Of a DNA stretch of 34,003 bases, positions 1 to 31,559 are shown one piece after another; within the stretch, counting starts at the first letter, position 1; every line of letters begins with the position of its first letter. Origin of the DNA: Byssothecium circinans (lineage: Eukaryota; Ascomycota; Dothideomycetes; Pleosporales; Massarinaceae); assembly GCA_010015675.1 (NCBI GenBank), contig ML977007.1, positions 1 through 34,003 of the forward strand, read 5' to 3'. Both the position numbers and the translations under genes were made by a program. The notes under the pieces were generated by a model. It was not told the origin of the DNA. It saw only the letters and a program-made list of their open reading frames with translations, and searched no databases.

Positions 1-671
1 GCAGTACTAGGGTTGAGTATACTATCGATCGCGTCATCTATATCGCTTGGGATTACTGCCAACGGCCTTACCGCGCGCGGTGAGGTGTTGTACTGCGCCC
101 AGAGCGCCTGAAAGCTAGCGTTACTGGCCTCGAGCCAGTCGGGCTTCTTAGCCCACGCCTTATCGCAGTAGTACTTGTACATTGGATAGAGTATTATAGT
201 AGCGTAGTACGCGGGCGAGTTATCTAGTTTAGAGTAGTAGTCATTGGCTTTCTACTAAGCTGCGCGCAAGTTAATTGCAATGCGATCCTTAGGTAACTCA
301 TCGTGCTTGTAGTTAACCGCCTCATACGCGTTAACGCGCTGCTCGTAGTAGGTAAGGAGGTATTCAAATATTAGAATTATCTTAGCAATAGCCTTAAAGC
401 TGCCGCTTTTGCCGCGCCCTTTAAGGCGCTTTATAGCAGTCTTAAGCGGTTTTAATATGTCCATGTACTCTGTAATTACTGCCTAATTAGCACCTATAAG
501 GCCGTCTGATTGCATCTACGGCTGCGCAATTAGTAGCTTGTTGCCATGACTTTGCGCAAACGTGTCCTCCCTTTGCACCCGCTATATGTGGTAAGTAGCG
601 TAGGCGTTAACTACAAACTATAGCTTTATAGTACGCTCAAAGCATAAGTAGTACGAGTTCTACCGCATAAT
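1..671 (-). pseudogene. hAT transposase, C-terminal part
   Basis: Read from 671 downward, this begins at an (I)MRWNSYY block, the RIP-altered form of the TRWNS motif that follows the central domain in fungal hAT transposases. It continues through a stretch beginning DILKPLKTAIKRL and GRGKSGSF, then FEYLLTYYEQRVNAYEAVNY, then YYSKLDNSPAYYAT and MYKYYCDKAW, and ends near SDIDDAIDSI. This is the hAT C-terminal dimerisation region in its usual order. The stops seen (TAG for Trp in RWNS, several TAG for Gln) are all explained by C-to-T or G-to-A change. The gene runs off the left edge, so the true C-terminus is not visible. Assignment rests on recognised motif order, not a database search. Confidence 0.85.
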
Positions 672-1530
672 GATTTTGCGGAGCGAGGAACGAGCGTAGC
701 AAATCTACAATCCAAATCGCGCCTGAGGGCTTCCAAAAAATCGCATTTTGACGTACTTCTACCTATTGAATTTCATTGCTGATTTTTCTATATATGCTAA
801 AAACTGTACTCTTGATAGTTCTACTAATAGCAGCCTATATTTAATTTGTTGTAATAGGTATGCGTGGATAAAACAGTGTTTTTTAAATGATGTTCTTTAG
901 AATCACGACTAATACGCGTGTCGCGTGTCCTATATTAGGCAGTGAAACAGGGGCTTAGGGTCCAAAAGCTGCTTGCGCCACTTTGTCTACCAGCCACTGC
1001 ATGCGGCAACATGACTAAACCCTATTTTGTGAAGAAAAAATTCGCTACACTATAGGCCTAATACCTCGCAACATTACCTAATACTACTTCCCTCCATCCA
1101 CGTACCCTTACACGTTATTATGGATGTTCCATACTACAATCACTGCAACGCACCTCTTACGCCTAGCGTTGATTAATTTCGCAATAATAAATAGAAGAAG
1201 AACTATCAGGCTTACCTTATAGTTACTTAGAGTTATAAACAGCGAGTAAATACGTTAGAGCATAAAGCTGCACCCCCTACAAAGTATCACGCAATGCTAA
1301 CGTTAGACTCTAGTCCTTTATCTAGTATTCTCCATACTCTAATGCTAGTCTAACCTTAATCTGTACTAACGTCTACGCTACATACGCTAACCACACTAGG
1401 GACTCCACTTGAGCAGCAGCTTCTTTATGCGGCTGGTATTAGTCTTAGTATTAGGCCACTATCTTAGTCTTTAAATACGTCGCTATTACCTTACCTATCC
1501 TAACTTCCCCTGTTAGCACCGCTAAGCGCC
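672..1530. other. Left non-coding part of the Helitron-like insert
   Basis: No protein frame is convincing here. The stretch 900-1030 keeps several CA and TG dinucleotides and looks less mutated than its surroundings. CTAATAC heptamers occur near 1058 and 1078, and a GTATTAG pair near 1429-1454, which may mark an untranslated-leader intron of the downstream gene. Confidence 0.4.
673..686 (+). repeat. Left terminal inverted motif of the Helitron-like insert
   Basis: ATTTTGCGGAGCGA lies directly at the left junction with hAT. Its reverse complement, one T shorter, occurs at 10133-10145. It is followed by AGGAACGAGCGTAGCAAATC, which partly folds back on it. Confidence 0.5.
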
Positions 1531-4500
1531 ATGACTCCCATTGAACCCCTATCGTCATCATAAACGCTTTCTAGTCAACTATTACTATAGATAGCCGTGA
1601 TACATTCTATATTACAGCCATGGTATTCATAATAGTAAGGGGAGAGTATTTTATAGAATACCCTTCTATCTTTAGTGTAATCACGTGATACTTACTCTAG
1701 TATTAGTCCTAGTATTAGTCGTACAACCTATATAGCAGCTAAGTCTAAAGAACATGTAGTTGATAAGTTAGATGATAGTATAGTAGTAGCTAAGTCTTAA
1801 GAATATATAGTTAATGAGTTTAATAATAGTGTAGATAGAGAGATACTTATAGAGGTAGAAGAGAATATATATAACTTCCCTCTAGAAGAGCCCCTATTAT
1901 GAATTCAGGATGACAGTTCCTATCTTTCTGATCCTACATTATCTAATTAAGATAAAACGTATATCTCTACGTTTTACAACGCACTTAAGAAAGAAGAGAT
2001 AGAGACGTGTATAATTTGCAACCATTATTAGTTTCACCTAAACGTTCGCCGTGGGGAATATGCTGCCTATTTAACTAATCGCGTTAAACATAGTACTGAA
2101 GAGGATTAGGTGCCTATATTTAGTGCTATAAATAATATAGATCTAGGTGTAATGCCTAACCTCCCTTCTCTTACTAATGTTAAGGAGATGCTTATTACCT
2201 AGGTTCACTGTTTTATACAGATATGTCAGCATCGTGGGTAGCCGTATAAGTATAGAGGGCATATATGTTATTTTACCATTAATGTAGCTAGGGTATTTTT
2301 AAGGCTTCCTATTCTTCTATCTAAGCTTGATATTATTATCCTTAAACTACTATATTTAGATGAGGACGACCACGCTTCAGTTGAACGTTAATTCAAGAAG
2401 AGTTAGAAAGTAAGGCGCACTATAGTGTTGCGTTAGCTATAATAGTTAAAGGTACATCACTCTAGATATAGTAATATTGTTATTAATAATAAGGCTATTC
2501 AAGAACTCCCTATTGATGGGTATGTAGACGATCAATTTACTGTGCTTCAGCATAGGGATATAGACATTAGGCTAGGGGATTATCCTAATACGCAAGAGCT
2601 AGTATTGCTATCCTATACGCTAGACTATTCACCCCTACTATCTATACCTACTATGACTACCTATACACTAGATGGGTCACCACCTAATACTAGGCCTAAT
2701 ACTAGCGCGGATTCCTACTATGATGGTAGCTTAATTTTTGATAAGGATGATAATGACGATAATGGAGCTAACATGACCGTAGTTCCTAATATTATTCCTA
2801 ATATTAGTGAATTTAAGACTTTGCGTCGTTAAATCTAATTAAGACCTTCCTACCTTACTATAGGCTTAGTGCGAAGGACACCTATTTCTAAATATAGTAA
2901 TTAGGAAAAGATCCTTAGTCTTGCATTTCCTACCTTATATCTAAATGGAATTAGTGACTATATGCAACCAAAGATGCGGGAGGTTGCATATGTGGACTAT
3001 GTTTAGCACATGATAAGCTATAAGGATGGACGTTTTACTCATTACTTATGTTTCTATTTTGCTACCTTTAATACGCTTCTCCGCAGGCAAACTACTGCAA
3101 AGGTAGGTTTCTTTATGAGGAAGACACTAGACGGCGCTTCTATGACGGCTAAGGATATTCAAGCTCAGTTTAATAGCGCTAATGGTGGGCAGAGTTTGAT
3201 TAACGCTATAGTATAGTTCTCTGCCTCTATTTAAGGTTCTTATGCGTATTAGAAAGTAGAGGGTATAAACCTGAAGGCTATAGTACGTGTAGTCTACCTA
3301 ATACCTAGCTAATACCCTTATTATTAATATCTAACTTTTATTAATAGGTTCGTTAGCTGTGATGTCCTCATCTATTTGTTACATACTCTGCTGCGGATTA
3401 CTATTAGGCTGATCTCATGAGATTTATGGGAGAGGAGGCCTTTACTAAGTAGTAGACTATAACTAATACACGTTAAGTAAGGCTAGCACAGGATTTCATA
3501 CGCGATAACTCACATATTATTGCTTACTGGTTCTACCATCAATTTGAACTATTTAAGAAGCATGTTATGACGCCTAAGTTTAACCTTGTTAACTTCTAGC
3601 ATTGTTACGAGTGGTAGGGCCATGGTAGTACTCATAACCATAGCCTATACTACTATAAGGATGCACCTCATCCTGATTAGTATTTAGCTTAGAATGCTAC
3701 TAAGCTTAAGAAGCAATGATTAGCAAAGTATTGGGGCTATTATATTAGCGCTGTTCATCCTAACCTACACAAGGCTACTCTAGAGCATTCATATGGCTCC
3801 CCCTTATCTCTTACATTTGATTAGATGGTTTTTGACTTTCATGAACTTGCTACTATCTTGACTAAGTGCTACATGCATGTATGTCATCTTAGTTACTGCT
3901 AAAGGAAAAACAAGAAGATAGGTAAGGTAGTCTATCACTTTAAGGCTCCCTAGCCACGTATAGCTAATCCCTACTTTACTAAATTAGCTAGGAAGTCTTT
4001 TTACCGTCTCCACGCTCAACGGAATCATCTACTTCTAAACGCGTACTGTCAAACTCTAGTATTAGGCTGGCAGGCTAATACTAACATATAGCCCTACACT
4101 AGTACTATAGGTGTTGTTCAATATGTTAGTCTATATGTTAGCAAGGTAGAGTAGCAGATGACGTCGTTTAAGGATATAGCTACTAAGATACTGCCTCATA
4201 TCTAGTCCAAGAATGCTATGTTCAAGTTTACGGCAAAGTTAATAAATAAATCAGCGGGCTAGAGGGACTATAGCGCTTAGGAAGTTTACTATATCCTCTT
4301 TAATCTACCCCTCACGGATTGTAGTCGTACTATTCTTAACGTTAACCTTTGTTATGAGGAGGATCAGCCTAAGACGTACGTCTTTCAAGCTAATCATCAA
4401 GTTAATGATGAAGTGTTTAAGGAAGATACACCTTAGTTTACTAAGGGCCGTTCTATGCTAGTAAAATACAAGGAGAGGCCTCTATCACTTAAAGCCGTAT

Positions 4501-6506
4501 CCTATTTAGACTACCTTCTTTATTATGACTATGCAAAGAATCAAGTTAGGCCCTAGGCTAGGCCTAGGATTTTAAAGTTTTACCCTCTATACTCTCCTAA
4601 GTTAGATAGGGAAGACTTCTCTCGCGTTAAGCTTATACTACATCATCTATTTTGACAGGTATTAGATGTAAGGACCTTTGCCGGCTAGGAGTACTAGTTA
4701 TTCTTGCAAGCCTATCAGAACTACCTATTAGTATGCAATCACCCTTTACCTAATAGCTTTAGAGAGGTGTTACCTAAAAACGAGGAAGAAGATCCAGATT
4801 AGGAAGACGTGGATTTAGCGGATAAGTCATCGTGGAATAAGCTTGCTAGTCGTCTCCCTAGTACTAATAGTATTATCATTAATAAGGATAACCTAGGCAG
4901 TTAGTTAGTTAATCTAGAGAAGGATTAGAACGTACTTAAGCATAAGGATAGTTACGGCCTTAATGCACGTTAATATTAGAAGGAGATGAAGACAGCTTAT
5001 CTAGTTAATTATGCTACTAGACTTAATACCTCGCCTAATACCCTTCAGTCTAAATAGCGGCTACTGTTCAATCTTATCATTAATCATTATTAAGCCTACC
5101 TAGATGGGAATAGGCTAGAGTAGCTTCTTCTTAACCTTGACGGCTAGGGTGGTACTAGAAAGACGTACGCTATTAAGGTTATAACCTCTACTATAGATAG
5201 TATTACGAGGGCTTTAGGGAAGAAATCACCTATTATATGGTGCGCACTAACTAGAGTAGCCACTTTTCTTATTTTAGGAAAGACTATCCACTCTACCTTC
5301 CGCATACTAATTTAACCTCCTGGTGGTGTGCTTCTACCTCTTGCTCTAGCAGCGTTAGCTTAGACCTAAGCGCTATTTACTAATGTTTATTACCTTATTA
5401 TAGATAAGAAGTCTATAGTAGGGCTAACAACACTAGCGTGGTTAGATATGAGGTGCCGTGAGATCTTTCTAGCATAGGCTAGCTATCCTTTTAGCGGTTT
5501 AAACATTATCCTAGCTAGTGATTTTTACTAGTTACCCCCTGTTATGAGAAGGCCTATGTTTGATACTATAAAGAGCCACAGCTCTTCAGATACAGCTAGT
5601 GCGGCGCTATATAAACTATTTACTAGAACTATTGTTCTAGATGTAGTTATGCGCTAGTAGGGTTCTGAACAGGCTTCCTTCCATGATACTCTTGCACGTA
5701 TCCGTGAGGAGAAGCCTAATATCCATGACTAGCTTCTCCTTATGAAACGCTGCAGCGTTGAGCTTAGCAAGGTAGAACGGAACTCCTTTAATTCTGCCTT
5801 GCGTATATGCGCAAAAAGGATAGAGGTAGCTGCTATTAATCATAACTGCCTCTAGGACTCTAGCCAGCCTATCCTTATTTTATAGGCCACACATAATAGT
5901 TAAGATTAAGAGAAGGTGTCTATTAAGGATGCGGGGAATCTCCATAACTAGCTCCCTATATTTATTGGTGCCTGGGTTATACTACTTAACAATATCTAGA
6001 TAGAGCGTGGTTTAGTTAATGGAGCTATAGGGGTTATTAATAATATCCTTTAGCAGCCTAATACCTAGGATTGTCGCAAGGCTACACTAAAGGCGGTATT
6101 AGTCACTATAGATAAGTATGATGGGCTGTGTCTTTACAGCCTTCTAGATGGTACAAAGGTTATTCTAGTATTTCCTCTTATTTGGGAATTTACTATTGAT
6201 TAGAGTATGCATGTGCGTATTTAATTCCCTATTACACTTGCCTAGGCTATTACAGTTTATAAATCCTAGGGTTTAAGTGTGGATAAGGCTGTTATCATGG
6301 TTAGTGGGGAGCGAGATCACTGCCCTAGCTTAATGTACGTTGCGCTTTTAAGGGTTAAGACTATTAATAGTTTAATGTTTAAGGATGTGTTTTCCTATCA
6401 GCGGTTAAAGCAAAAGAGAAGCAAGGTGTTAGAGATGTAAGAGTGGGATATAAGGTGTAGGGCGCGTCATCACGTTACAGTGTAGCAGACTATTTTCTAG
6501 GTCTAA
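1531..6506 (+). pseudogene. Helitron Rep-helicase (rolling-circle replication initiator fused to Pif1-type helicase)
   Basis: Two frames joined by one intron (3283-3347) give about 1630 codons from the ATG at 1531 (MTPIEPLSSS). In order: an acidic N-terminus; a Cys-containing block (ETCIICNHY, ~2008); the conserved N-terminal region of Helitron helicases (KEMLIT.VHCF through KYRGHICYFTINVARVFLRL, ~2185-2310); FVTYSAAD at 3375-3398; the HUH metal motif HGSTHNH at 3621-3641; and the catalytic-tyrosine segment QYVSLYVSK with Tyr codons at 4122 and 4134. The Pif1 helicase follows, with Walker A GGTRKT at 5148-5165 (the GKT glycine became Arg), a QLPPV-like motif near 5530 and VYKSQGLS near 6249. 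Dozens of TAG/TAA/TGA stops, read as former Gln or Trp codons, make it non-functional. The end is uncertain because the last stops may also be mutated codons. Confidence 0.88.
3283..3347 (+). other. Intron in Rep-helicase, 65 bp, CTAATAC pair
   Basis: Donor GTACGT, branch site TCTAAC, acceptor TAG. Removing it joins frame 1 (ending EGINLKAI) to frame 3 (VRQLWCPHLFVTYSAAD) in phase 0. It contains CTAATAC-CTAG-CTAATAC. Confidence 0.75.
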
Positions 6507-7207
6507 TACCTAGACCAATACCACTGTCATTAAGAGGTTTTATAAGGGTGGTTTCCTATAATATAAGTATTCCTATGAAAGTTTCCCTAATCTATCTAGA
6601 TGGATAGAGCGCCTAATACCATAGCCTAATACTCTATGACTATATCCTAATCCTTAGAGCATATGGTCTCTATGTCTATACCATCTACTAAATACAGACT
6701 TAGATTAACGTCACCCTTATCGCCTAGCCTCTTAAGCTCTATGAATTTTATAATGTTAGGCATCTTCACACCATTATTGTAGCCTTGATAGGGAACCTCT
6801 AGCTTAATACTTTCTATTATATCTTCTTCTATTTGCACACCTTCCATTGGTTCGCCTTGGGAAGTATTCTCTGTAGGAAGTTCTGCAATGATATAGTCAA
6901 GTAGATCTGTAGCATATCCTACATTCTCACCTTGTACCTTAGGGAAATGTGCGCTATAGTCTTTAATAGTGCGTAGATTATACGCACTAGGAAGCTTGCA
7001 TGCTTTACCATTGCGAAAGAGTTAGATAGTAGAGTCTGCATAATCCCTATCACGCTGTGCTTAGTAGATTAGAGAGAGTAGCACGCGTTATTGTCAGGGG
7101 AATAGCATAGGGAATGGCGGAACAGGCATCTTTGACTTAGTGTCAACGCTGATCAGGTATCTATAAGGCACTTCTGACTTCTATAGTGCTGACCTTATAG
7201 CGATAAT

Positions 7208-7255
7208 CTGTTATAGTTAGCTTATGCCTAATACCCTAACTAATACTACACTTAC
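7208..7255 (-). other. Intron 5 of accessory gene, 48 bp, GTATTAG pair
   Basis: Donor GTAAGT, GTATTAG-TTAGG-GTATTAG, branch GCTAAC, acceptor CAG. Phase 0 between the exons ending PMWWGQ and starting IIAIRSAL. Confidence 0.75.
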
Positions 7256-7318
7256 TTAACCCCATCACATAGGCAGCTTTAATTTAGTCTTCTTAAACAC
7301 CTTTCAAGTAGCACTAGC

Positions 7319-7367
7319 CTATTAATAGTTAGTTCTAGACTAATACTAGGTCTAATACCCTACTTAC
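7319..7367 (-). other. Intron 4 of accessory gene, 49 bp, GTATTAG pair
   Basis: Donor GTAAGT, GTATTAG-ACCTA-GTATTAG, branch ACTAAC, acceptor TAG. Phase 0; the flanking exons are 84 and 63 bp, both multiples of three. Confidence 0.78.
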
Positions 7368-7451
7368 CTATCCTAAACGCACTAGCTTCTTTCTAGCCAC
7401 TAGAAGAGTGACTTAGTTATTAAGTGTTAGGTTAAGCCACTAGATATAGCG

Positions 7452-7497
7452 CTACTTAGTATTAGCTATAGTATTAGGTTAGTTGCATTACACTTAC
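7452..7497 (-). other. Intron 3 of accessory gene, 46 bp, CTAATAC pair
   Basis: Donor GTAAGT, CTAATAC-TATAG-CTAATAC, acceptor TAG (an AAG lies three bases earlier). Phase 0. The heptamers are in the orientation opposite to introns 4 and 5. Confidence 0.7.
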
Positions 7498-7948
7498 AAT
7501 AAACATGCCTTATAGCATGCGTAGAATAAATCCCTTTAGCCCTTAATAACAGAGAATCCTTAACTTTTCCACTATAATGTTAAGCTCTCTATTCCAGTAT
7601 TTCTTTACCTGTAGCTAGTAGCTAAGCTCTATCCATTCTTCCCTCTCTTTATTGCTTAGGTTAGGCACTGTTATATCAAATTTTTCTTTTTTCTCCTTAA
7701 TGTCCGTCGTCTTTTTATCCGCTTTGCCTGCGTTAGATTTGCCCTTTTTGCTTGACTTACTGCTCTCTACACTCTTATTAATAGTAGACGAGGCAGCGTT
7801 AATAATATACTAAGGTGGCATGAACTCATCTTCTAGTGCCTAGACCTTTTCTTAAGGCTTAAAGACTAATCTTATAGTTTTATAGTTAGATTCTGGCTTT
7901 CTAGTGCGTGCCATGGCTAGCTGTATCTAGAGTAGATTCTAACTCTCC

Positions 7949-7997
7949 CTATATATTATTAGTTATACCTAATACTAGACTAATACTCTTCTCATAC
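7949..7997 (-). other. Intron 2 of accessory gene, 49 bp, GTATTAG pair
   Basis: Donor GTATGA, GTATTAG-TCTA-GTATTAG, branch ACTAAT, acceptor TAG. Removal joins HNTALKA to RESQNLLQ in frame (phase 2). Confidence 0.7.
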
Positions 7998-8139
7998 CTA
8001 GCCTTAAGCGCTGTATTGTGACTCTGAATTCAAAGCATGTCCTCAAGTTACTTACGCTCATTTTCATCTGTAGCGCTATCAAGCAGGTGCTAAATACGTG
8101 GCAAGAACTTCTTTGTCTAGAAAGTAGAGCACGCCTTTA

Positions 8140-8183
8140 CTAAGTTAGTATATAATTACTTAGGTATGGGGGGGTTATTATAC
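8140..8183 (-). other. Intron 1 of accessory gene, 44 bp, no heptamer pair
   Basis: Donor GTATAA, a run of seven C, perfect TACTAAC branch site and TTAG acceptor. It lacks the heptamer pair. The exon-exon frame is off by two bases with this acceptor, so either an indel occurred or a neighbouring acceptor was used. Confidence 0.5.
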
Positions 8184-8318
8184 CTTATTATTAGCGTTTT
8201 TTCCCTTTTGAATCATGAAGTCTTCGTCCTGCTTGCTTGCGCGAAGTTTGTTATTTTTGATAGTGCTTACATTTGATGAGTATGCATTAGCAGCCTTCAC
8301 CTTCTTCTGGTCTACCAT

Positions 8319-9134
8319 TGCAGCGAGAGGGCTTAGCAGGATGTATTAGGTAGGTATTAGGCGTTATTTAGTAGTAGGGCAAAGTTGCGTGTAGTACGTA
8401 GACGTTATATAAGGAGTATATAAGAAGTAGTGTTAAGTGGCAAATTTTTAGTAATAAGTTTATTTATAGTTACACGAAATTAAAAGTGGGGCTAGGTAGC
8501 AATCACGGGAAATTATTACTAGCCTATCGTGTGCGTTGAATGCGCCCAACACTTTACGACATGATTCTAGCATGAGCGTGTGCAGCTTAGTTAGCTGCAC
8601 AAGTACATACTAGAATCATAGTATTAGGTTAGGTATTAGTCTCTCTTTAGAAGCCGTTTCCCATCTTCATACGTAGTTTTCTTGCTAACGTAATGTTTTC
8701 TCTCTTATTTTACTTCTCTTTACGCCCTTACCTTTACTACTTACCTTTACCACTCACCCTTACTAGCTACCTTTACGTTACCTTCTTACTTCTCGCGCTT
8801 ACCTACCACCCCGCACTTTAACAACTCTCGATCTTTGCGATTTTGCTATCTTTGTGGTCGTAAAGCTTTGCAGCTGCAGTATAGCTATAACTAAAGTATT
8901 AGGCTTAGTATTAGCTTTTCTATGTGTATACTCCCCTACAATTTCCCCTTCTATTGCCTACTAATTTTGACTTCCTTGCGTACTATCACTATTCCTATTT
9001 CTCACTTTTACTATTCTTATTTCTCACTTTCACTTTCACTATTAACGTCATTGGTTTTCCGTCTGTTTTCTAACTAAAAAGTAGTTAGTTTACGTCTATC
9101 TTATTTTCTTTCATACACCTTACAACATACCATC
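8319..9134. promoter_or_regulatory. Divergent intergenic region between accessory gene and histone H3-like gene
   Basis: The two genes point away from each other, so this stretch should hold both promoters. From about 8690 to 9130 the + strand is strongly pyrimidine-rich (runs of CTTTAC, TTTCTC, CTTTCACTTT), as is typical upstream of fungal start codons, and leads into CATACCATCATGG at the histone start. A 59-bp palindrome sits at 8561-8619. GTATTAG pairs lie near 8341-8360, 8620-8637 and 8895-8914; they could mark untranslated-leader introns. Confidence 0.5.
8561..8619. repeat. 59-bp imperfect palindrome (double stem)
   Basis: Outer arms ATGATTCTAG / CTAGAATCAT (10 bp, perfect) enclose inner arms GTGCAGCT / AGCTGCAC (8 bp, perfect) around a 5-nt loop. 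The 9-nt segments between the arms partly match and may once have paired before mutation. Confidence 0.85.
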
Positions 9135-9213
9135 ATGGCCGCCAAGAAGAATTGAGGCAAGCTGCCTGCAAAGGCTCCTCGTGGTAGAGCTAGCAAGGGT
9201 AATAGCACCTAAG

Positions 9214-9262
9214 GTAGGCTAGGTATTAGTCTTAGTATTAGCTACATGTTAACTATGTCTAG
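9214..9262 (+). other. Intron 1 of histone H3-like gene, 49 bp, GTATTAG pair
   Basis: Donor GTAGGC, GTATTAG-TCTTA-GTATTAG, branch GTTAAC, acceptor TAG. Phase 1; restores the frame from GNSTQ to ALGPHKKG. Confidence 0.75.
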
Positions 9263-9460
9263 CTTTAGGTCCTCATAAGAAAGGCTAGAAGAAGCTTCCT
9301 ACTAATACTAGCACGAACCCATATAAGGGTTGTAAGAAGAAGGGAGGGTCGCCGCCGCTAACACGGAAGCTAATAAGCTATGCTATGCAGAAGGAGCGTG
9401 CTCCCATCTATAAAGGCCCTAGCAAGAGAGGCCCTCATATTAGGCGTCGTAAGCCTGGTA

Positions 9461-9508
9461 GTAAGTTTTTAACCTATATTACTATAGCTAGACTAATACT
9501 AGTATTAG
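9461..9508 (+). other. Intron 2 of histone H3-like gene, 48 bp, inverted heptamer pair
   Basis: Donor GTAAGT. The 3' end is the 16-bp palindrome CTAATACTAGTATTAG, whose final TAG is the acceptor. Phase 1, splitting the Thr of KPGT. Confidence 0.8.
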
Positions 9509-9706
9509 CCTTTACTCTAGTAGAGATCCATTTCTACTAGAAGACTCTAGGTGACTTAATTCTAGTAGCGCCATTCAGGAGATTAGTTCGCGAGGTGCTA
9601 CAGAATAATTAAGAGGGAAATAGTAACCCTATGTCCCGTTTCTAGTCTAGGGCTTTGGACGCCTTATAGGCTGCTACCAAGGCCTTCCTAGTGGATATCT
9701 TGCAAG

Positions 9707-9756
9707 GTATTAGTCTAATTTATATGGTATTAGCCTCTGCTAATAATAGTACCTAG
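9707..9756 (+). other. Intron 3 of histone H3-like gene, 50 bp, GTATTAG pair
   Basis: The donor is itself the first heptamer (GTATTAG); the second lies 20 bases on. Branch GCTAAT, acceptor TAG. Phase 1; removal gives FLVDILQATNLSAI, which aligns with H3 without gaps. Confidence 0.8.
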
Positions 9757-9866
9757 CTACAAACCTTAGTGCTATCTATGGGAAGCGCGTCACTATTCAA
9801 GCTAAGGACGTTAAGCATGTTATTAGTGTTAGCAAGATTCTTGCTCTATATAGTAAGATTCTATAG

Positions 9867-10179
9867 GACTTGCCCACCTAATACTGTATCTCACTATGCT
9901 ACCTATCTCCTATATGTTAAGCTTAAGGGTATTAGGCGGTATAAGGCATGACTACTAGCGTTAAATAGATATTATCTGCAAAGTATAGCTTTCTATACTA
10001 CTCAATTTGAGGAGTTATAATAGACTGGAACATGGAAGGTTTCTAGCATACTAGCTAGGATAGGTAGCTTAACTATCTAAATGAAAAAGCTTTATTACGT
10101 AACTACTCTTCTTCTCTACCCCAAGTGATAAATCGCTCCGCAAATTCTAATTCCCGTTTATGAAAATTGGAAGGATCTT
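9867..10179. other. Right end of the Helitron-like insert
   Basis: No protein frame is convincing: + strand openness is low-complexity and ends at the hAT junction. The inverted motif TCGCTCCGCAAAT lies at 10133-10145, about 35 bases inside the right end. No strong terminal hairpin is visible. Confidence 0.4.
10133..10145 (-). repeat. Right subterminal inverted motif of the Helitron-like insert
   Basis: TCGCTCCGCAAAT is the reverse complement of the left terminal motif at 673-686 minus one T. Its offset from the end makes the pair asymmetric. Confidence 0.5.
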
Positions 10180-11658
10180 AGGTTTAATAGGCTTAAGGAT
10201 CTTATGATCGTTAGCTAACGCGCTAGATGATAGCTTAGTGTAGGCGAGGCGCTAGAAGTCCTTAAAGAGCTTATGCTATTATGGCGTTTTAATGTAGTTC
10301 ATAATACTAAGTAGTACGCTAAGTAGGCCTACGCGCCTCTACTCCTCTATAAAGTCGTGCTCGTTGGTGAGCTCTTATACGTTATTATTAAATGAGGTGG
10401 TGCTGCCCTTACCCTAGAGGAGCGTCTAGCTAATAAGGTTAAGCGTGTAAGGTCTACAGCGGAGGCGCTAGTAGGTAACATTATAACTATACTCTTAAGC
10501 TAATATTGCAATAGTACTATTATTATTAGTAGCGTTATTAAGCATAAAGTAACTAATTAACTGCGACGTAATCTTAAAGTCCTATAGCGTTTTTATAATA
10601 ACCTTAGCCATCCTCTCGCTACTATGAGCACCTGTTAGCTAGGGCAGCGCTATAGGCAAGTCCTGCAGGTCGCCTCTACTATTAATAAAGTACGTAATAA
10701 CGCCTAGAAAGCCATGCTTGCCACCCTTTGTCATCCATCTATTAAAGCTAAGGTGTACTTTGCTAAGCGCCTATAATAGTTATAAGATAACGCGCGGCTT
10801 TAGGTGCTTATATAAGCGCGTAATGTACTAGGAGATGCTTACATGAGACGTCTAAAGTGCTCGTTCTGCTAGTAGGTTAGAAGCTTCAAGGAAGCATTAA
10901 AAAGCTAGTGTTTTAAACTTAGAGAGAGGGTAATTATTCTTAATAAGCTAGCTAATAGCTGCTAGCTAGAAGCGCTAGGTATTAAAGCTAGTAAGCTCAT
11001 TAGCTACCTTCTATGACACGCTATTATTACTATCTTTAAGTAGGCGTTATAGCTAGGTAGGTTTTATAGTAATAGCTAACTTGCTATAGCTATGGCCACG
11101 CTTAGGCAGCTCTAAGTGTCGCTACGCTAATGACGTTAAGAGCGTCATCTCATATATCCTAACGCCAGTATCTGTGTACTTATGCTCGTAGCAGTGATAG
11201 CATACGAAGTATAGCTTACTTAGGTCCTTTAGCAGCGCAACGCGGTAGCTATAGCAATAGATCTAGCTCTTGCGCGACTTTTGTAATAAGAGTAGCTTCA
11301 TATACTTGCGTAAACGCCCTTAATTAATTCCCTTAAAGTCATCTATAAGGCTCGCGTCTAGCGCCTCTTACAAGGTCTTATTATCTAGGGTTGCTACTAA
11401 TGAGGCTGCTGTTACCCTCTCACTGCCCTTAGTAGGCGCGACGATAGCGTCTTTAGGCCGTGACTTACGTAGTTATAACTTAAAAGTTAAAGCCTAGGAC
11501 GCCTCTATAAGACCTTTGTAAGGTGATAGACGTGATAGTAATAGCGATAGCTAACTATCAACAGCTATAGGCTAGCTGATAGTGCCGCGGGCAATAGAGG
11601 ATTTAACGCGTTTCTTTAGGTAAGTAAGGTTATTAGAGACGCGTTTCATAGGAGGCAT
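10180..11658 (-). pseudogene. hAT transposase, N-terminal and central part
   Basis: From the ATG at 11658 (MPPMKRVSNN) the frame runs 493 codons without an indel to KPIKP at the insertion junction. In order: Leu/Lys-rich segment RKYMKLLLLQKSRKS; BED-type zinc finger YFVCYHCYEHKYTDTG (~11200); MTLLTSLAQRHLELPKRGHSY; then the catalytic domain with SFNRWMTKGGKHGFLGVITY, LPIALPQLTGAHSSERM, FMLNNATNNNSTI and PYTLNLISQTLL; then SIMNYIKTPQQHKLF. The catalytic Asp of the FDxWT motif is Asn at 10743-10741, and the Asp of LDNATNND is also Asn, both G-to-A changes. Stops are RIP-type. An apparent + strand frame over 9960-11090 is only the antisense of this gene. Confidence 0.88.
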
Positions 11659-12460
11659 AGCGGTAGCAATATGATAAGGGCAATAGGAGTAAAAAAAATA
11701 ACGTGATAGTAAGTTATTTAGGTAGCTAGTAGAGGGAGTATAGTATTGTAGAAGTTAGGCTAATTACGTACTAGTACTATAATAACTATAACACTAAAAA
11801 CCTATTATAAGATTACTCCTACTATAAAATAAGCAGCCTCACGCGCTACCTTAATTAAGCCTATCAAGCTAAACAATCAAGCTGACCCTCCTCAGCTTAG
11901 ATTGCTAAAAAATTAGTATAGGCGAGCTTGACTTGATAGGATTGATAGTTATCAAGCTATCAATCAAGCGTTTGCAAGCCGCTTAATTATTAACAAGTCT
12001 AGTAGTTAGGTGCTACCTAGAAGGGACTAACCTACTATCTAAGTAATGCTACCTCCCCTACTCATCCTTTTCTTACTAATCATTATAGGGCGAGCGTTTA
12101 TTAATAAAATTAGATAAAAGCTTAGTTTATGCATGTTACCATTTACGCCTTAGGTCCTAAATAGTTCAGGATCAACCACTCTAGCAACGTAACTTTAATC
12201 TAAATAAAATGTCAGGTATTGCCTACATTATAAGAATATAGCACTTATACCTACTTTAGGACCCTACTCAACTAATAGCCTATAAGGTATTATAAGCTTA
12301 GTTCCGTCAGGAAGCGTAAAATTTACTGGTGACCTAAGCGGCGGAAGTAACATTAGTGCGTTAGTGCCTAGCCCTATCCAAAATAGTAAGCACACTAGGC
12401 ATAATAAGAATAATAAAAAACTTACCTACTTTATTATTGTATAAGTGGGTTTTCTAGAAT
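11659..12460. other. hAT 5' flank and unassigned sequence
   Basis: 11659-11990 is the leader and probable terminus of the hAT element: AT-rich, with repeated CAATCAAGC-type motifs and a hairpin. From 11991 to 12460 I see no gene, tRNA or clear repeat. Confidence 0.4.
11940..11965. repeat. Hairpin near the hAT terminus
   Basis: GATTGATAG - 8-nt loop - CTATCAATC, a perfect 9-bp stem in the putative subterminal region of the hAT element. Confidence 0.7.
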
Positions 12461-19257: not shown

Positions 19258-19309
19258 CAGTACTAGGTCAAAAGTTCGTTCCGCGCTAAGCGAAAATCAC
19301 TAAAACGCG
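19258..19309 (+). repeat. Left terminal inverted repeat of the Tc1/mariner element
   Basis: CAGTACTAGGTCAAAAGTTC ... CACTAAAACGCG; pairs with 20544-20593, differing mainly at RIP-type sites. Confidence 0.8.
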
Positions 19310-19394
19310 ACCTAACGCCCATCCAAATTGAGGCTATATATATAGAGCGCAATCGTATACAGGTGATATATTTAGTGTAGTAGTAGATAAATAC

Positions 19395-20510
19395 TCAGTA
19401 TTTTATTTGATAGCCTTTTACCTGCCTGCAGGCGATGATTTAACTAGGCATGCTAAGGATGAGTCGCTTGATGAGCGCGCTTGGTATCCTCCGCCATGCC
19501 TCCTTTAAAGCCTCACAAAACTCATCCCAATGCTCTTAGGCTCTTGAGTAGTTATTAAATTAAGGAAACTTAGTATATATAATCCTTTTAAGCCTCTACT
19601 AAAGGTGCTTAATTAGGTTAAGGTCAGGTGAATAGGGTAGCCACTTAGTGACCTAAATGCCGTATCTCTCTAAGAAATCCTTTGCTACCCCTAACGTATA
19701 GATAGGAGCGTTATCCTGCATAAAGATCTCTCCTAGTTAGTAATAAAGTAATAAGCCCTCTTCTAAAGCCTCTAAATAGCTCTAGGTCGTATATCCTTAG
19801 TAGGCGGCTTATAGGTCTCTTTTTATGATTACTAATTTACTCCTTTATATACTACCCCTTTAAGTAAGCTACACCTCTGCCTATACTATTTATTAAGGAG
19901 GACAGCTCTTAGTATATTTAGTAACTATCTTATAACTCTATCTCTTATTAGGATATTGAAAGGCCTACTTAGTATTAGCCCTAGAGCCCTTTTGAATAGA
20001 GCACTTATCTAAGAAGTAAAATAGGTAGCGCCTTTATAGGTAGTTACAATACTCTCTAGACCACTTAAGCCTTAAAATAGCTATCGCATAGTTAATTTTA
20101 GGTCGCTTAGAGCATTGGTAGTTCCGTAATCTAACCTCTCTAATCGTGTGATAGATGGTAGAGCGTAAGGGGCTAGTAGTAAGGGAGTCTTATCTTATCT
20201 TACATATAAGCGTATTATACTTAATTTTTAGTATCTTTCATATAAAGTATTTAATTTGATTAATTATTCTTTGTAAGAGGTATTTTAGATAGCTAGAGCG
20301 AGGCAAATCCTTAGTAGTGTGGTGCTATGAAAATTAGTAGATAATTTTACGTATCCTACGCATGGTATGGCTAAACTTATTAGCTAGCTCTCTTATCATA
20401 TACCTAGCTTGCCACTTAGCAATGATTTGCTTATGCTTAAGGGGAGTAGTATTTAGCCTTTTATAGGCATTTCTAGAGATTTCTGTACTAAACTAACGTA
20501 GTTAAGGCAT
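19395..20510 (-). pseudogene. Tc1/mariner (fungal Ant1/Tan1-like) transposase
   Basis: From the ATG at 20510 to TGA at 19397-19395, 371 codons, close to the usual length of fungal members. The N-terminal helix-turn-helix region is clear: STEISRNAYKRLNTTPLKHK, WQARYMIRELANKFSHTMRR, IRKIIYQFS, TTKDLPRSSY. The C-terminal DDE region reads QDNAPIYTLGVAKDFLERYG and TKWLPYSPDLNLIKHL. The family motif is PIEHLW: the catalytic Glu is Lys (19610-19608) and the Trp codon is a stop, both G-to-A. With many TAG/TAA stops the enzyme is dead, although the ends are intact. Confidence 0.85.
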
Positions 20511-20543
20511 TGTAGTAGTAGGTTGAAGGTATTAACGCGTTTA

Positions 20544-20593
20544 CGCGTTTTAGTATTTCTCGCTTAGTAGAATGAACTTTTGACGCATTACTA
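20544..20593 (-). repeat. Right terminal inverted repeat of the Tc1/mariner element
   Basis: The reverse complement begins TAGTAATGCGTCAAAAGTTC and ends ATACTAAAACGCG, matching the left repeat. Confidence 0.8.
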
Positions 20594-20595
20594 TA

Positions 20596-30343: not shown

Positions 30344-31559
30344 TAAAACTAGGTATATAATAACACTTTGTTAATACAAAGGATGTATTATTTAGAAATA
30401 TAACTATAGTTTTAATTCCTTTAACGTTTATAAAAGAATTATCTCTTTAACTAATTTTAGTATTATAGTTTCTAAAGGTCGTAAATAACTCTTTTCTATA
30501 TACTATATATTAAGTTAACCTTAAATTTAGAATAAAGCTAGTTTTAACTTTTCTATAACTAGGGGAACTAGTTATAAGTACCTTATTTTAATAATAATTA
30601 TTATTTTCTACTATATCTAAATCCTCTTCTAGATTATTATCTAGATTATCTAGATTAATATCTAGATTAGAAGTAGATAGATCCTCTTCTAAGGATTCTA
30701 TAAAGCCTTTAGAGGATTTAATATAAGGCGTCTTAGTAGCTAGAAAAGCCTTCTTCTTTTCTTTCTTAGTAGGTTTAACTGCTAAGGCCTTATTCTCTTT
30801 CTCTCTAGGTCTTTTAAACCTATTAAAGATTTTAAAGCCTTTAAGAGCTTTTTTAGAAAATAAATAATAATAGTTCTTAGATAAGTGACTATTATTTTTA
30901 CACCTAGTATAGTACCTTTTAGGTTTTTGTACTTTAAAGCTTTTCTTAAAGTTTCTAGCTTTATTATTAAATAGGACTGAATCTTCACTTAAGCTTTTAA
31001 TCCTTCTAGACTCGTCTATTAAATTAGAAAATAGTATTTCTAAATTAACATCTAACGTTTTATCTCTATAGGATTAAGTAATAGCTAAAACAAAAGTTTT
31101 AAAATTACTATTAAGATTATTAAGGATCTAAGCTACTACTAATTGCTTTGGTAGTATTATATCCTTAGATCTTAATTTATTTATAAGTTGCTTTACTTTA
31201 TTTAGATATTCCTTTATAGAAGAGAAATTATCTAGCTTAATAGTAAAGAATTCTTTAGACTAGAAATTTACTAATAAATCTTTTAGATAAATAAAGGTTA
31301 TCTAGTAAATCCTAAGCTTCTTTAGAAGATGTATAGTACTTTATATGTAATAAAGGACTATCTTCTATAGATAGCTTTATTGAAGCAAATACTTTGTATC
31401 TATCTTATCTCTTTAAAGATTAGATTGTATTGCTTTAATATAGTCTTTTTCTTTTAGTATAGCTTTAAGCCTAAGTTTCCAAGTTTCGTAGTTTTCTTAG
31501 CCTTTTAGCTTTTCTAAGCTATACTTAGTAGAAGATTATTCTCTTGCTCTAGAAGGCAT
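30344..31559 (-). pseudogene. Copia gag and start of protease
   Basis: From ATG 31559: MPSRAREQSSTKYSLEKLKG and ENYETWKLRLKAILKEKDYI are the usual start of copia gag; then SSKEAQDLLDNLYLSKRF, FFTIKLDNFSSIKEYLNKVK and LPKQLVVAQILNNLNSNFKT. The zinc knuckle at ~30915-30870 reads YTRCKNNSHLSKNY where CX2CX4HX4C is expected; the first and last Cys have become Tyr (TGY to TAY). The protease region FIL.LRLT..IVYRKEL and FLNNTSFVLTKCYYIPS follows, and the frame is cut after YYIPS at the gypsy LTR. The protease Asp in FILDSGAT is changed. Frameshifts and RIP-type stops occur throughout. A stop-free 68-codon frame at 30782-30988 overlaps in another frame. Confidence 0.8.

What the first reader, a model, noticed from the sequence alone, without database searches (positions are those of the whole stretch)
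9135..9866. Histone H3-like gene carried inside a Helitron-like insertion
After removing three short introns, four exons align with histone H3 over the αN helix and histone fold without gaps except a longer loop 1. The tail is about 50 residues longer than in H3 and the C-terminus differs. Because the insert limits are fixed by the interrupted hAT gene, the histone gene lies inside mobile DNA. A mobile element encoding its own H3 variant could alter chromatin at the element or the host; that part is speculation. I know of Helitrons capturing host genes but cannot say whether this case has been described.
Basis: partly seen in the sequence, partly recalled or inferred. Interest (0 to 1): 0.92.

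Follow-up and report, generated by a model that had tools for sequence, protein, structure and literature searches.

The report
Fungal Helitron carrying histone H3 gene
A family of jumping genes in a fungus carries its own divergent version of histone H3, a protein that packages DNA; the copy in this window has been mutated into silence, but the family's ancestor was intact not long ago, so the idea that such elements rewrite the packaging of DNA to avoid being switched off can be tested.

Summary
Window 9135-9881 is a four-exon histone H3-like gene (H3L); the spliced frame of a less damaged copy hits Pfam Histone at E 7.4e-25. It lies inside a 9505-bp Helitron2-type element, window 675-10179, whose limits are fixed by an empty hAT site, a 12-bp asymmetric inverted repeat and a TNAT^A target. 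The genome, Byssothecium circinans, holds at least 27 H3L copies; 26 abut the element's right end. In the 22 copies I aligned, 163 of 164 internal stops are RIP-type while frame and introns are otherwise nearly all kept. So the progenitor was intact and spread recently; the window's copy is dead. H3L is 57% identical to both host H3 and host CENP-A in the fold, a tree cannot place it, and its 93-residue tail lacks the K4, K9, K27 and K36 contexts. Divergent H3-like genes in hAT transposons are published (PMC3538342, PMC6710886); for one in a Helitron I found no paper in the listings searched. Function is inferred: most likely a nucleosomal H3 substitute serving the element, possibly against silencing.

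The parts
675..10179 (+). Helitron2-type element, 9505 bp, TTTGCGGAGCGA...GGATCTT
671..674 (+). 5' flank TGAT of the TNAT^A target; base 10180 (A) is the other half
   Evidence: 17 of 19 left-flank loci matched my end pattern and all 17 read TNAT; 12 right ends in 20 loci matched the exact end and all 12 are followed by A.
675..686 (+). 5' arm of asymmetric terminal inverted repeat, TTTGCGGAGCGA
   Evidence: Sequence.
10133..10144 (+). 3' arm of the inverted repeat, TCGCTCCGCAAA, 35 bp inside the 3' end
   Evidence: Sequence.
2107..2499 (+). DUF6570 (PF20209) part of the Rep-helicase frame
   Evidence: E 1.6e-18 (stops read as X).
2998..3650 (+). Helitron_like_N (PF14214), in two frames (2998-3288, below cut-off, and 3345-3650)
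   Evidence: E 2.9e-4 and 2.7e-10.
5130..6044 (+). PIF1-like helicase (PF05970, 5130-5693) and Pif1 2B domain (PF21530, 5949-6044, below cut-off)
   Evidence: E 1.5e-15 and 0.0021.
6647..8318 (-). second accessory gene, several exons, unknown function (boundaries tentative, read from the C62 copy)
   Evidence: Open stretches in L021 5582-7253; no Pfam hit; no homologue.
8561..8619 (.). 27-nt imperfect inverted repeat (hairpin) between the second gene and H3L
   Evidence: DNA fold z -6.67; 25 other matches in the genome, all on contigs that carry the element.
9135..9213 (+). H3L exon 1 (tail; start uncertain)
9263..9460 (+). H3L exon 2 (tail, into the T codon of PGT)
9509..9706 (+). H3L exon 3 (alphaN, alpha1, long loop 1, alpha2)
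9757..9881 (+). H3L exon 4 (loop 2, alpha3, divergent C-terminus, stop)

Best explanation
Anatomy (shown, about 0.95): a RIP-inactivated copy of a recently active Helitron2-type rolling-circle element whose autonomous form carried three genes: Rep-helicase, an unknown gene on the other strand, and a divergent histone H3 variant (H3L) next to the 3' terminus. Working (inferred, about 0.5): before RIP, H3L was translated and served the element rather than riding along. The protein kept the H3 core (alphaN, histone fold, several DNA-contact residues of loops 1 and 2) and so probably pairs with host H4 and replaces H3 in some nucleosomes. Its tail lacks the K4, K9, K27 and K36 contexts, so nucleosomes holding it could not carry H3K9 or H3K27 methylation on that subunit. 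The likeliest benefit is to loosen silencing of freshly made copies, or of the host's heterochromatin, while the element replicates.
For: Ends, empty site and target; domains. Linkage: 26 of 27 H3L copies abut the right end, which accounts for all 26 full right ends found; the 27th runs into a contig end. No free-standing H3L: the 27 DNA matches, 90-100% identical to the window's, are all in the element. In 22 aligned copies, 163 of 164 internal stops sit where C62 has CAG, CAA, CGA or CGG; 20 of 22 have no gapped or unread codon and 21 of 22 have GT..AG at all three introns. Window against C62: 705 changes towards T/A in the window, 61 in C62, 4 transversions, no gap in 9505 bp, CA the favoured context. 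An open frame after such divergence from H3 (57% identity in the fold) argues for past selection. Retained against host H3: R52, K56, R69, R72, R83, F84, Q85, K115, R116, T118, K122, H113, D123, E97; tail motifs ARTK, ARKS, KSTGG, GGVKKP absent (residue roles recalled). Helices alphaN-alpha1-alpha2-alpha3 predicted in H3 order. An unrelated element, the hAT of P. tritici-repentis, also carries an H3L with ESTs, plus an unknown ORF.
Against: No expression or protein data. All 22 aligned copies have at least one internal stop in the 200-codon frame; the best, C62, has one, at codon 4, that is not RIP-type. R49, R53, R63 and K64 are replaced and the part of the H3-H3 interface beyond residue 125 does not align, so normal tetramers are not assured. 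RIP density over H3L is like that of the rest of the element and exon and intron rates are alike, 0.179 and 0.170, so there is no sign that the gene is preserved. AlphaFold confidence is low (pLDDT 64.5, pTM 0.36) and Foldseek finds no PDB match at E <= 0.001. A relative 82% identical in the helicase shows no H3L in the next 4.1 kb, and five further helicase copies lack H3L at the expected place. No second named fungal relative.
Confidence: 0.55

Rival explanations
1. Passenger: the Helitron captured an H3-variant gene, already divergent in some fungus, and amplified it with no benefit to itself. H3L spread because it lay between the helicase and the 3' end.
For: Helitrons can capture genes (PMC4289320, abstract and passages; that paper also concludes that fungal Helitrons do so less than plant and animal ones). 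The copies are nearly identical apart from RIP, so one recent burst explains their number. The 82% relative has no H3L in the stretch read. In P. fijiensis the captured H3 copies are all inactivated.
Against: No donor found: the DNA search shows only element copies, and of six other histone-fold loci fetched only two are H3-type, host H3 and host CENP-A; further weak Pfam hits were not read. Intron positions in the fold differ from those of host H3 and host CENP-A. A passenger that had drifted to 57% identity inside the element would be expected to have lost its frame.
Confidence: 0.33
2. A captured CENP-A (CenH3) variant that marks or seeds centromere-like chromatin.
For: Loop 1 is longer than in H3, as in CENP-A; 50 of 87 identities to host CENP-A against 48 of 84 to host H3. 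Grouping with CENP-A is not rejected (p-AU 0.425).
Against: The loop 1 motif is RFQS as in H3, not RWQS; the best tree puts it nearer H3; the 60 PDB matches listed, of 176, are all H3. Host CENP-A is present and separate.
Confidence: 0.08
3. A host histone variant gene family that merely lies among repeats, the Helitron link being coincidental.
For: NCBI lists P0001 as an ordinary predicted protein.
Against: 26 of 27 copies abut the element's right end and 22 of 27 have the helicase within 2.7 kb upstream. The element with H3L inside sits as one piece in a hAT.
Confidence: 0.01
4. Dominant-negative or dosage effect: H3L acts not in nucleosomes but by titrating H4 or histone chaperones, disturbing chromatin assembly during transposition.
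For: The fold up to loop 2 is kept while the C-terminal interface is changed.
Against: No binding data; of residues 86-90, which I recall as chaperone-facing, only 86 and 88 are kept.
Confidence: 0.1

Closest known systems
hAT transposon with H3L in Pyrenophora tritici-repentis (Manning et al. 2013, PMC3538342; passages read)
   Same: DNA transposon in a Pleosporales fungus with an H3-like gene that belongs to neither H3 nor CenH3, has tail insertions, and sits with an ORF of unknown function; 26 copies in the reference genome.
   Different: Other superfamily (hAT with terminal inverted repeats, 5.6 and 2.3 kb forms), mostly open frames, ESTs reported. Its H3L sequence could not be fetched here, so common descent with this H3L is untested.
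hAT elements with captured H3 in Pseudocercospora, Cercospora and Sphaerulina (Dhillon et al. 2019, PMC6710886; abstract, section 9 and passages)
   Same: Mobile element with H3-like sequence in many copies, inactivated by RIP; about 9.5 kb full length in P. fijiensis.
   Different: hAT, not Helitron; captured without introns from host H3; 90% of copies truncated. Here three introns, a complete frame, no donor found.
FoHeli1/FoHeli2 Helitron2 elements of Fusarium oxysporum (PMC5148889; abstract, sections 6 and 13)
   Same: Asymmetric inverted repeats with the 3' copy tens of bp inside the end; insertion between TNAT and A (text of section 6; one figure legend there says T).
   Different: 5-6 kb, other terminal sequences, no histone gene mentioned in the sections read.
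Helitrons and other transposons encoding TET/JBP dioxygenase (PMC12730594; passages)
   Same: Fungal Helitrons carrying a gene that could counter epigenetic silencing.
   Different: An enzyme acting on DNA methylation, not a histone.

Membership tests
Helitron (Helitron2 variant) | Rep (Helitron_like_N) and PIF1-type helicase in one element | tested here: met
   PF14214 E 2.7e-10, PF05970 E 1.5e-15.
Helitron (Helitron2 variant) | No target site duplication, precise ends | tested here: met
   Empty site in L022 gives TNAT^A with no duplication.
Helitron (Helitron2 variant) | Asymmetric terminal inverted repeat, 3' copy inside the end | tested here: met
   12-bp repeat, 3' arm 35 bp inside the end.
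Helitron (Helitron2 variant) | Terminal hairpins, as in some Helitron2 | tested here: not met
   both end folds no stronger than shuffles (z 1.28 and 1.25). FoHeli3-5 lack a 3' hairpin and Chaetomium Helitrons a 5' one, so I do not take hairpins as required.
Helitron (Helitron2 variant) | Rep-helicase groups with Helitron2 in a tree; catalytic HUH and tyrosine residues | not tested
   No reference set was fetched; the C62 frame is itself interrupted.
Histone H3 | Histone fold with H3-type alphaN helix | tested here: met
   By sequence; helix order in a low-confidence model.
Histone H3 | Canonical tail with K4, K9, K27 and K36 contexts | tested here: not met
   ARTK, ARKS, KSTGG, GGVKKP absent; KAPR present. 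It is H3-like, not canonical H3.
CENP-A (CenH3) | Longer loop 1 | tested here: met
   Five residues longer than host H3, two longer than host CENP-A.
CENP-A (CenH3) | Groups with CENP-A in a tree | tested here: inconclusive
   best tree nearer H3, CENP-A grouping p-AU 0.425.
CENP-A (CenH3) | Centromeric localisation | not testable with these tools
   Needs ChIP or tagging.
hAT-borne H3L (P. tritici-repentis) | hAT transposase and terminal inverted repeats in the same element | tested here: not met
   The hAT here is the interrupted target, outside the element; no hAT domain in the element's six frames.
hAT-borne H3L (P. tritici-repentis) | Sequence kinship of the two H3L proteins | not testable with these tools

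The most novel reading that the evidence does not exclude
The element builds its own chromatin: a Helitron encodes a histone H3 substitute without the K9 and K27 methylation sites, deposited in nucleosomes to shield the replicating or newly inserted element from heterochromatin. Together with the hAT-borne H3L of P. tritici-repentis this would make transposon-encoded histone variants a recurrent anti-silencing device in fungi, acting at the level of the nucleosome.
Probability: 0.22. Interest if true: 0.88.

Novelty: new variant of a known kind. Interest (0 to 1): 0.6.

Why it matters
Two unrelated classes of fungal DNA transposon, a hAT in P. tritici-repentis and a Helitron here, carry diverged H3-like genes with open frames, the Helitron's until RIP. 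That recurrence hints at selection on transposons for histone cargo and gives a concrete, testable candidate for an element acting on nucleosomes themselves. If H3L was only a passenger, this is still a clean case of RIP destroying an amplified histone gene while the host's own H3 and CENP-A frames stay open.

Tried and rejected
Tree with H3 and CENP-A: five rows were dropped between (32 rows; 27 rows): Hexamita H3, P0002, the Alternaria CENP-A, and the second Periconia and Dothidotthia proteins; placement stayed unresolved. The CENP-A rows were my choice from the 120 listed of 7990 hits. Selection within the family: 21 copies differ from C62 over the gene by 1427 changes towards T/A, 24 the other way and 31 transversions, so codon-position rates say nothing about selection; one search's figure of 56 transversions had counted 25 unread bases (N) of one copy. 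AlphaFold plus Foldseek: no match at E <= 0.001, not used as support. Viral contigs: 4 pattern matches, none encodes a relative. Rfam at gathering thresholds: nothing. Second gene: no Pfam, no homologue at E <= 0.001 among 4658 candidates. First test for the hAT used + frames of the window flanks and minus frames of L022 5900-8600 and found none; a longer stretch of L022 on both strands found it. C17:346178, with an 80% left end, looked like a sister element, but the 1.6 kb read where H3L would lie matched only stretches of the window outside the element.

Full report
What is there. Window bases 675-10179 are one insertion. Locus L022 from the same genome (contig C3) holds the uninterrupted site: window 1-674 and 10179-12000 match adjoining pieces that meet at L022 base 7831, and the join reads TNAT^A with no target duplication. 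The interrupted repeat is a hAT: a hAT dimerisation domain (PF05699, E 1.3e-19) lies in L022 about 80 bases beyond what corresponds to window base 1, on the window's minus strand. The window starts at the end of its contig, so that part is not in it.

The element. It begins TTTGCGGAGCGA and ends GGATCTT, and the 12-bp start recurs inverted 35 bp before the 3' end. Left flanks: of 19 loci read, 17 matched my end pattern and all 17 end in TNAT; the other 2 were not read further. The window (TGAT) and C62 (TTAT) agree. Right flanks: in 20 loci, 12 ends matched the exact pattern and all 12 are followed by A, as is the window's. FoHeli1 and FoHeli2 of Fusarium have such asymmetric repeats and insert between TNAT and A (PMC5148889, sections 6 and 13 read). 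Read with X at stops, the + frames give DUF6570, Helitron_like_N in two frames, PIF1, and, below their cut-offs in these long frames, Pif1 2B and Histone. The minus frames give nothing above cut-off. Terminal hairpins, seen in some Helitron2, were not found. A Rep-helicase tree was not made, so the label Helitron2 rests on ends and target.

The histone gene. In the C62 copy (contig C62, minus strand), the least damaged in the gene (one internal stop against 5 to 11 in the other 21 aligned), there are four exons and three short introns; the same exons in the window are 9135-9213, 9263-9460, 9509-9706 and 9757-9881. The spliced frame hits Pfam Histone at E 7.4e-25 and PDB H3 chains at 8.4e-23. 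NCBI's predicted B. circinans protein P0001 (171 aa) has the same exons 2-4 and a shorter start. Its contig is listed as 234,802 bases while C62 has 230,209, so I cannot say that it was called at exactly this locus. The genome is B. circinans also by its CENP-A: P0007, 100% identical, on a contig of 1,237,813 bases, the length of C13.

Copies. A DNA search with the gene finds 27 copies, 90-100% identical to the window's; 25 cover the whole 751-base query, one lacks the first 25 bases (unread bases there) and one is cut at a contig end. 26 of 27 abut the element's right end, 22 of 27 have the helicase within 2.7 kb upstream and 20 of 27 a left end within 11 kb. The 26 right ends that match in full are those 26. 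Seven of 31 helicase matches have no H3L 2-7 kb downstream: C69:49340, C30, C14:1086132, C23:111332, C99, C47 and one piece of C91. I did not read what lies there except at C47. C47 is an 82% relative; no H3L was found in the 4.1 kb after its helicase match (L068), but its right end was not located, so it may be truncated.

Decay. Of the 27 copies, 22 lay in DNA that I held and were aligned. 21 of 22 are 751 bases long (one with 25 unread bases) and one 749; GT..AG holds at all three introns in 21 of 22. All 22 have at least one internal stop in the long frame; of 164 stops, 163 lie at codons that are CAG, CAA, CGA or CGG in C62, and one is C62's own at codon 4. Window against C62 over 9505 bp: no gap, 705 changes towards T/A in the window, 61 in C62, 4 transversions; those in the window prefer CA (0.427 of sites), then CG (0.246), with CC and CT near 0.01. 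This is RIP after a recent burst from an intact progenitor. Exon and intron rates are alike (0.179, 0.170), so nothing shows protection of the histone gene. In C62 the Rep-helicase is also interrupted.

What kind of H3. From KPGT to residue 125, H3L matches host H3 at 48 of 84 and host CENP-A at 50 of 87 aligned positions; host H3 and CENP-A match each other at 68 of 94 from KPGT on. Loop 1 is five residues longer than in H3 and two longer than in CENP-A. With 32 rows the tree joined H3L to another long branch. With 27 rows cut to the fold it stood nearest H3, but grouping with CENP-A was not rejected (p-AU 0.425; with Pleosporales CENP-A alone 0.431). Its introns in the fold (in the PGT codon and before ATNL) are not those of host H3 (after VTI) or host CENP-A (at QRL/V). 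So it is an H3-like protein of unresolved origin; no donor was found in this genome, though weaker Pfam hits were not read and a diverged donor could be missed.

How it may work. Conserved against host H3: R52, K56, R69, R72, R83, F84, Q85, K115, R116, T118, K122, H113, D123, E97; changed: R49A, R53F, R63P, K64V, C110G, A114G, E105Q, D106A; not alignable from 126 on (roles recalled). The tail holds 26 K/R in 93 residues but no ARTK, ARKS, KSTGG or GGVKKP, so the usual K4, K9, K27 and K36 contexts are missing. Inference, not shown: it pairs with H4, enters nucleosomes and makes them refractory to K9/K27 methylation. The altered C-terminal interface speaks against ordinary tetramers, and chaperone titration is an alternative. 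AlphaFold gave four helices in H3 order at low confidence (pLDDT 64.5, pTM 0.36), and Foldseek found no PDB match at E <= 0.001.

A second cargo gene. On the opposite strand between helicase and H3L (about 8318-6647) lies a multi-exon gene without Pfam domain or detected homologue. Between it and H3L a strong hairpin (z -6.67) recurs; its other 25 matches in the genome are on contigs that carry the element, one of them (C14:1089787) in a copy without H3L downstream.

What is known. Manning et al. 2013 (PMC3538342, passages) describe a hAT element in P. tritici-repentis with transposase, an unknown central ORF and an H3-like gene belonging to neither H3 nor CenH3, with tail insertions and ESTs. 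Dhillon et al. 2019 (PMC6710886, abstract, section 9 and passages) describe hAT-borne H3 copies, RIP-inactivated, in six Mycosphaerellaceae. The word Helitron occurs in the main text of neither. For a Helitron-borne histone I saw nothing in the titles and abstract starts listed (20 of 894; 15 of 827; 15 of 101; 1 of 1; 8 of 8), nor for this element in the B. circinans papers listed (10 of 11); PMC4289320 on fungal Helitron cargo has no mention of histones. The library lacks most subscription journals and bioRxiv. Hence: a new variant of a known kind, and the best next step is a direct comparison with the Pyrenophora H3L, which I could not fetch.

Noticed in passing
window 6647-8318, minus strand: Second accessory gene of the element, several exons, no Pfam domain and no detected homologue; the P. 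tritici-repentis hAT element also pairs its H3L with an unknown ORF.
   Followed up: partly
window 8561-8619: Strong hairpin in the gap between the divergent second gene and H3L (z -6.67); 25 other matches in the genome, one of them the reverse strand of a listed copy, all on contigs with the element.
   Followed up: partly
window 1430-9517, scattered: GTATTAG / CTAATAC words recur in both orientations through the element, including all three H3L introns; they may mark a shared intron type (introner-like), not tested.
   Followed up: no
window 1733-1834: 51-nt unit duplicated in tandem (80% identical) inside the element upstream of the Rep domain.
   Followed up: no
L068 (C47:24300-28500) and C47:22736-24384: Diverged relative (82% in the helicase) without H3L in the 4.1 kb read after its helicase match.
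   Followed up: partly
C33:228560-229565 and C17:643637-644195: Matches to parts of both end regions lie within about 1.0 and 0.6 kb, perhaps short non-autonomous derivatives.
   Followed up: no
window 19259-20595: Repeat that also sits as an insertion of about 1.33 kb inside the L036 copy of the element.
   Followed up: no
window 30588-31073, minus strand: The only stop-to-stop frame of 150 aa or more in the window (161 aa), gag-like to my eye; no Pfam hit.
   Followed up: partly
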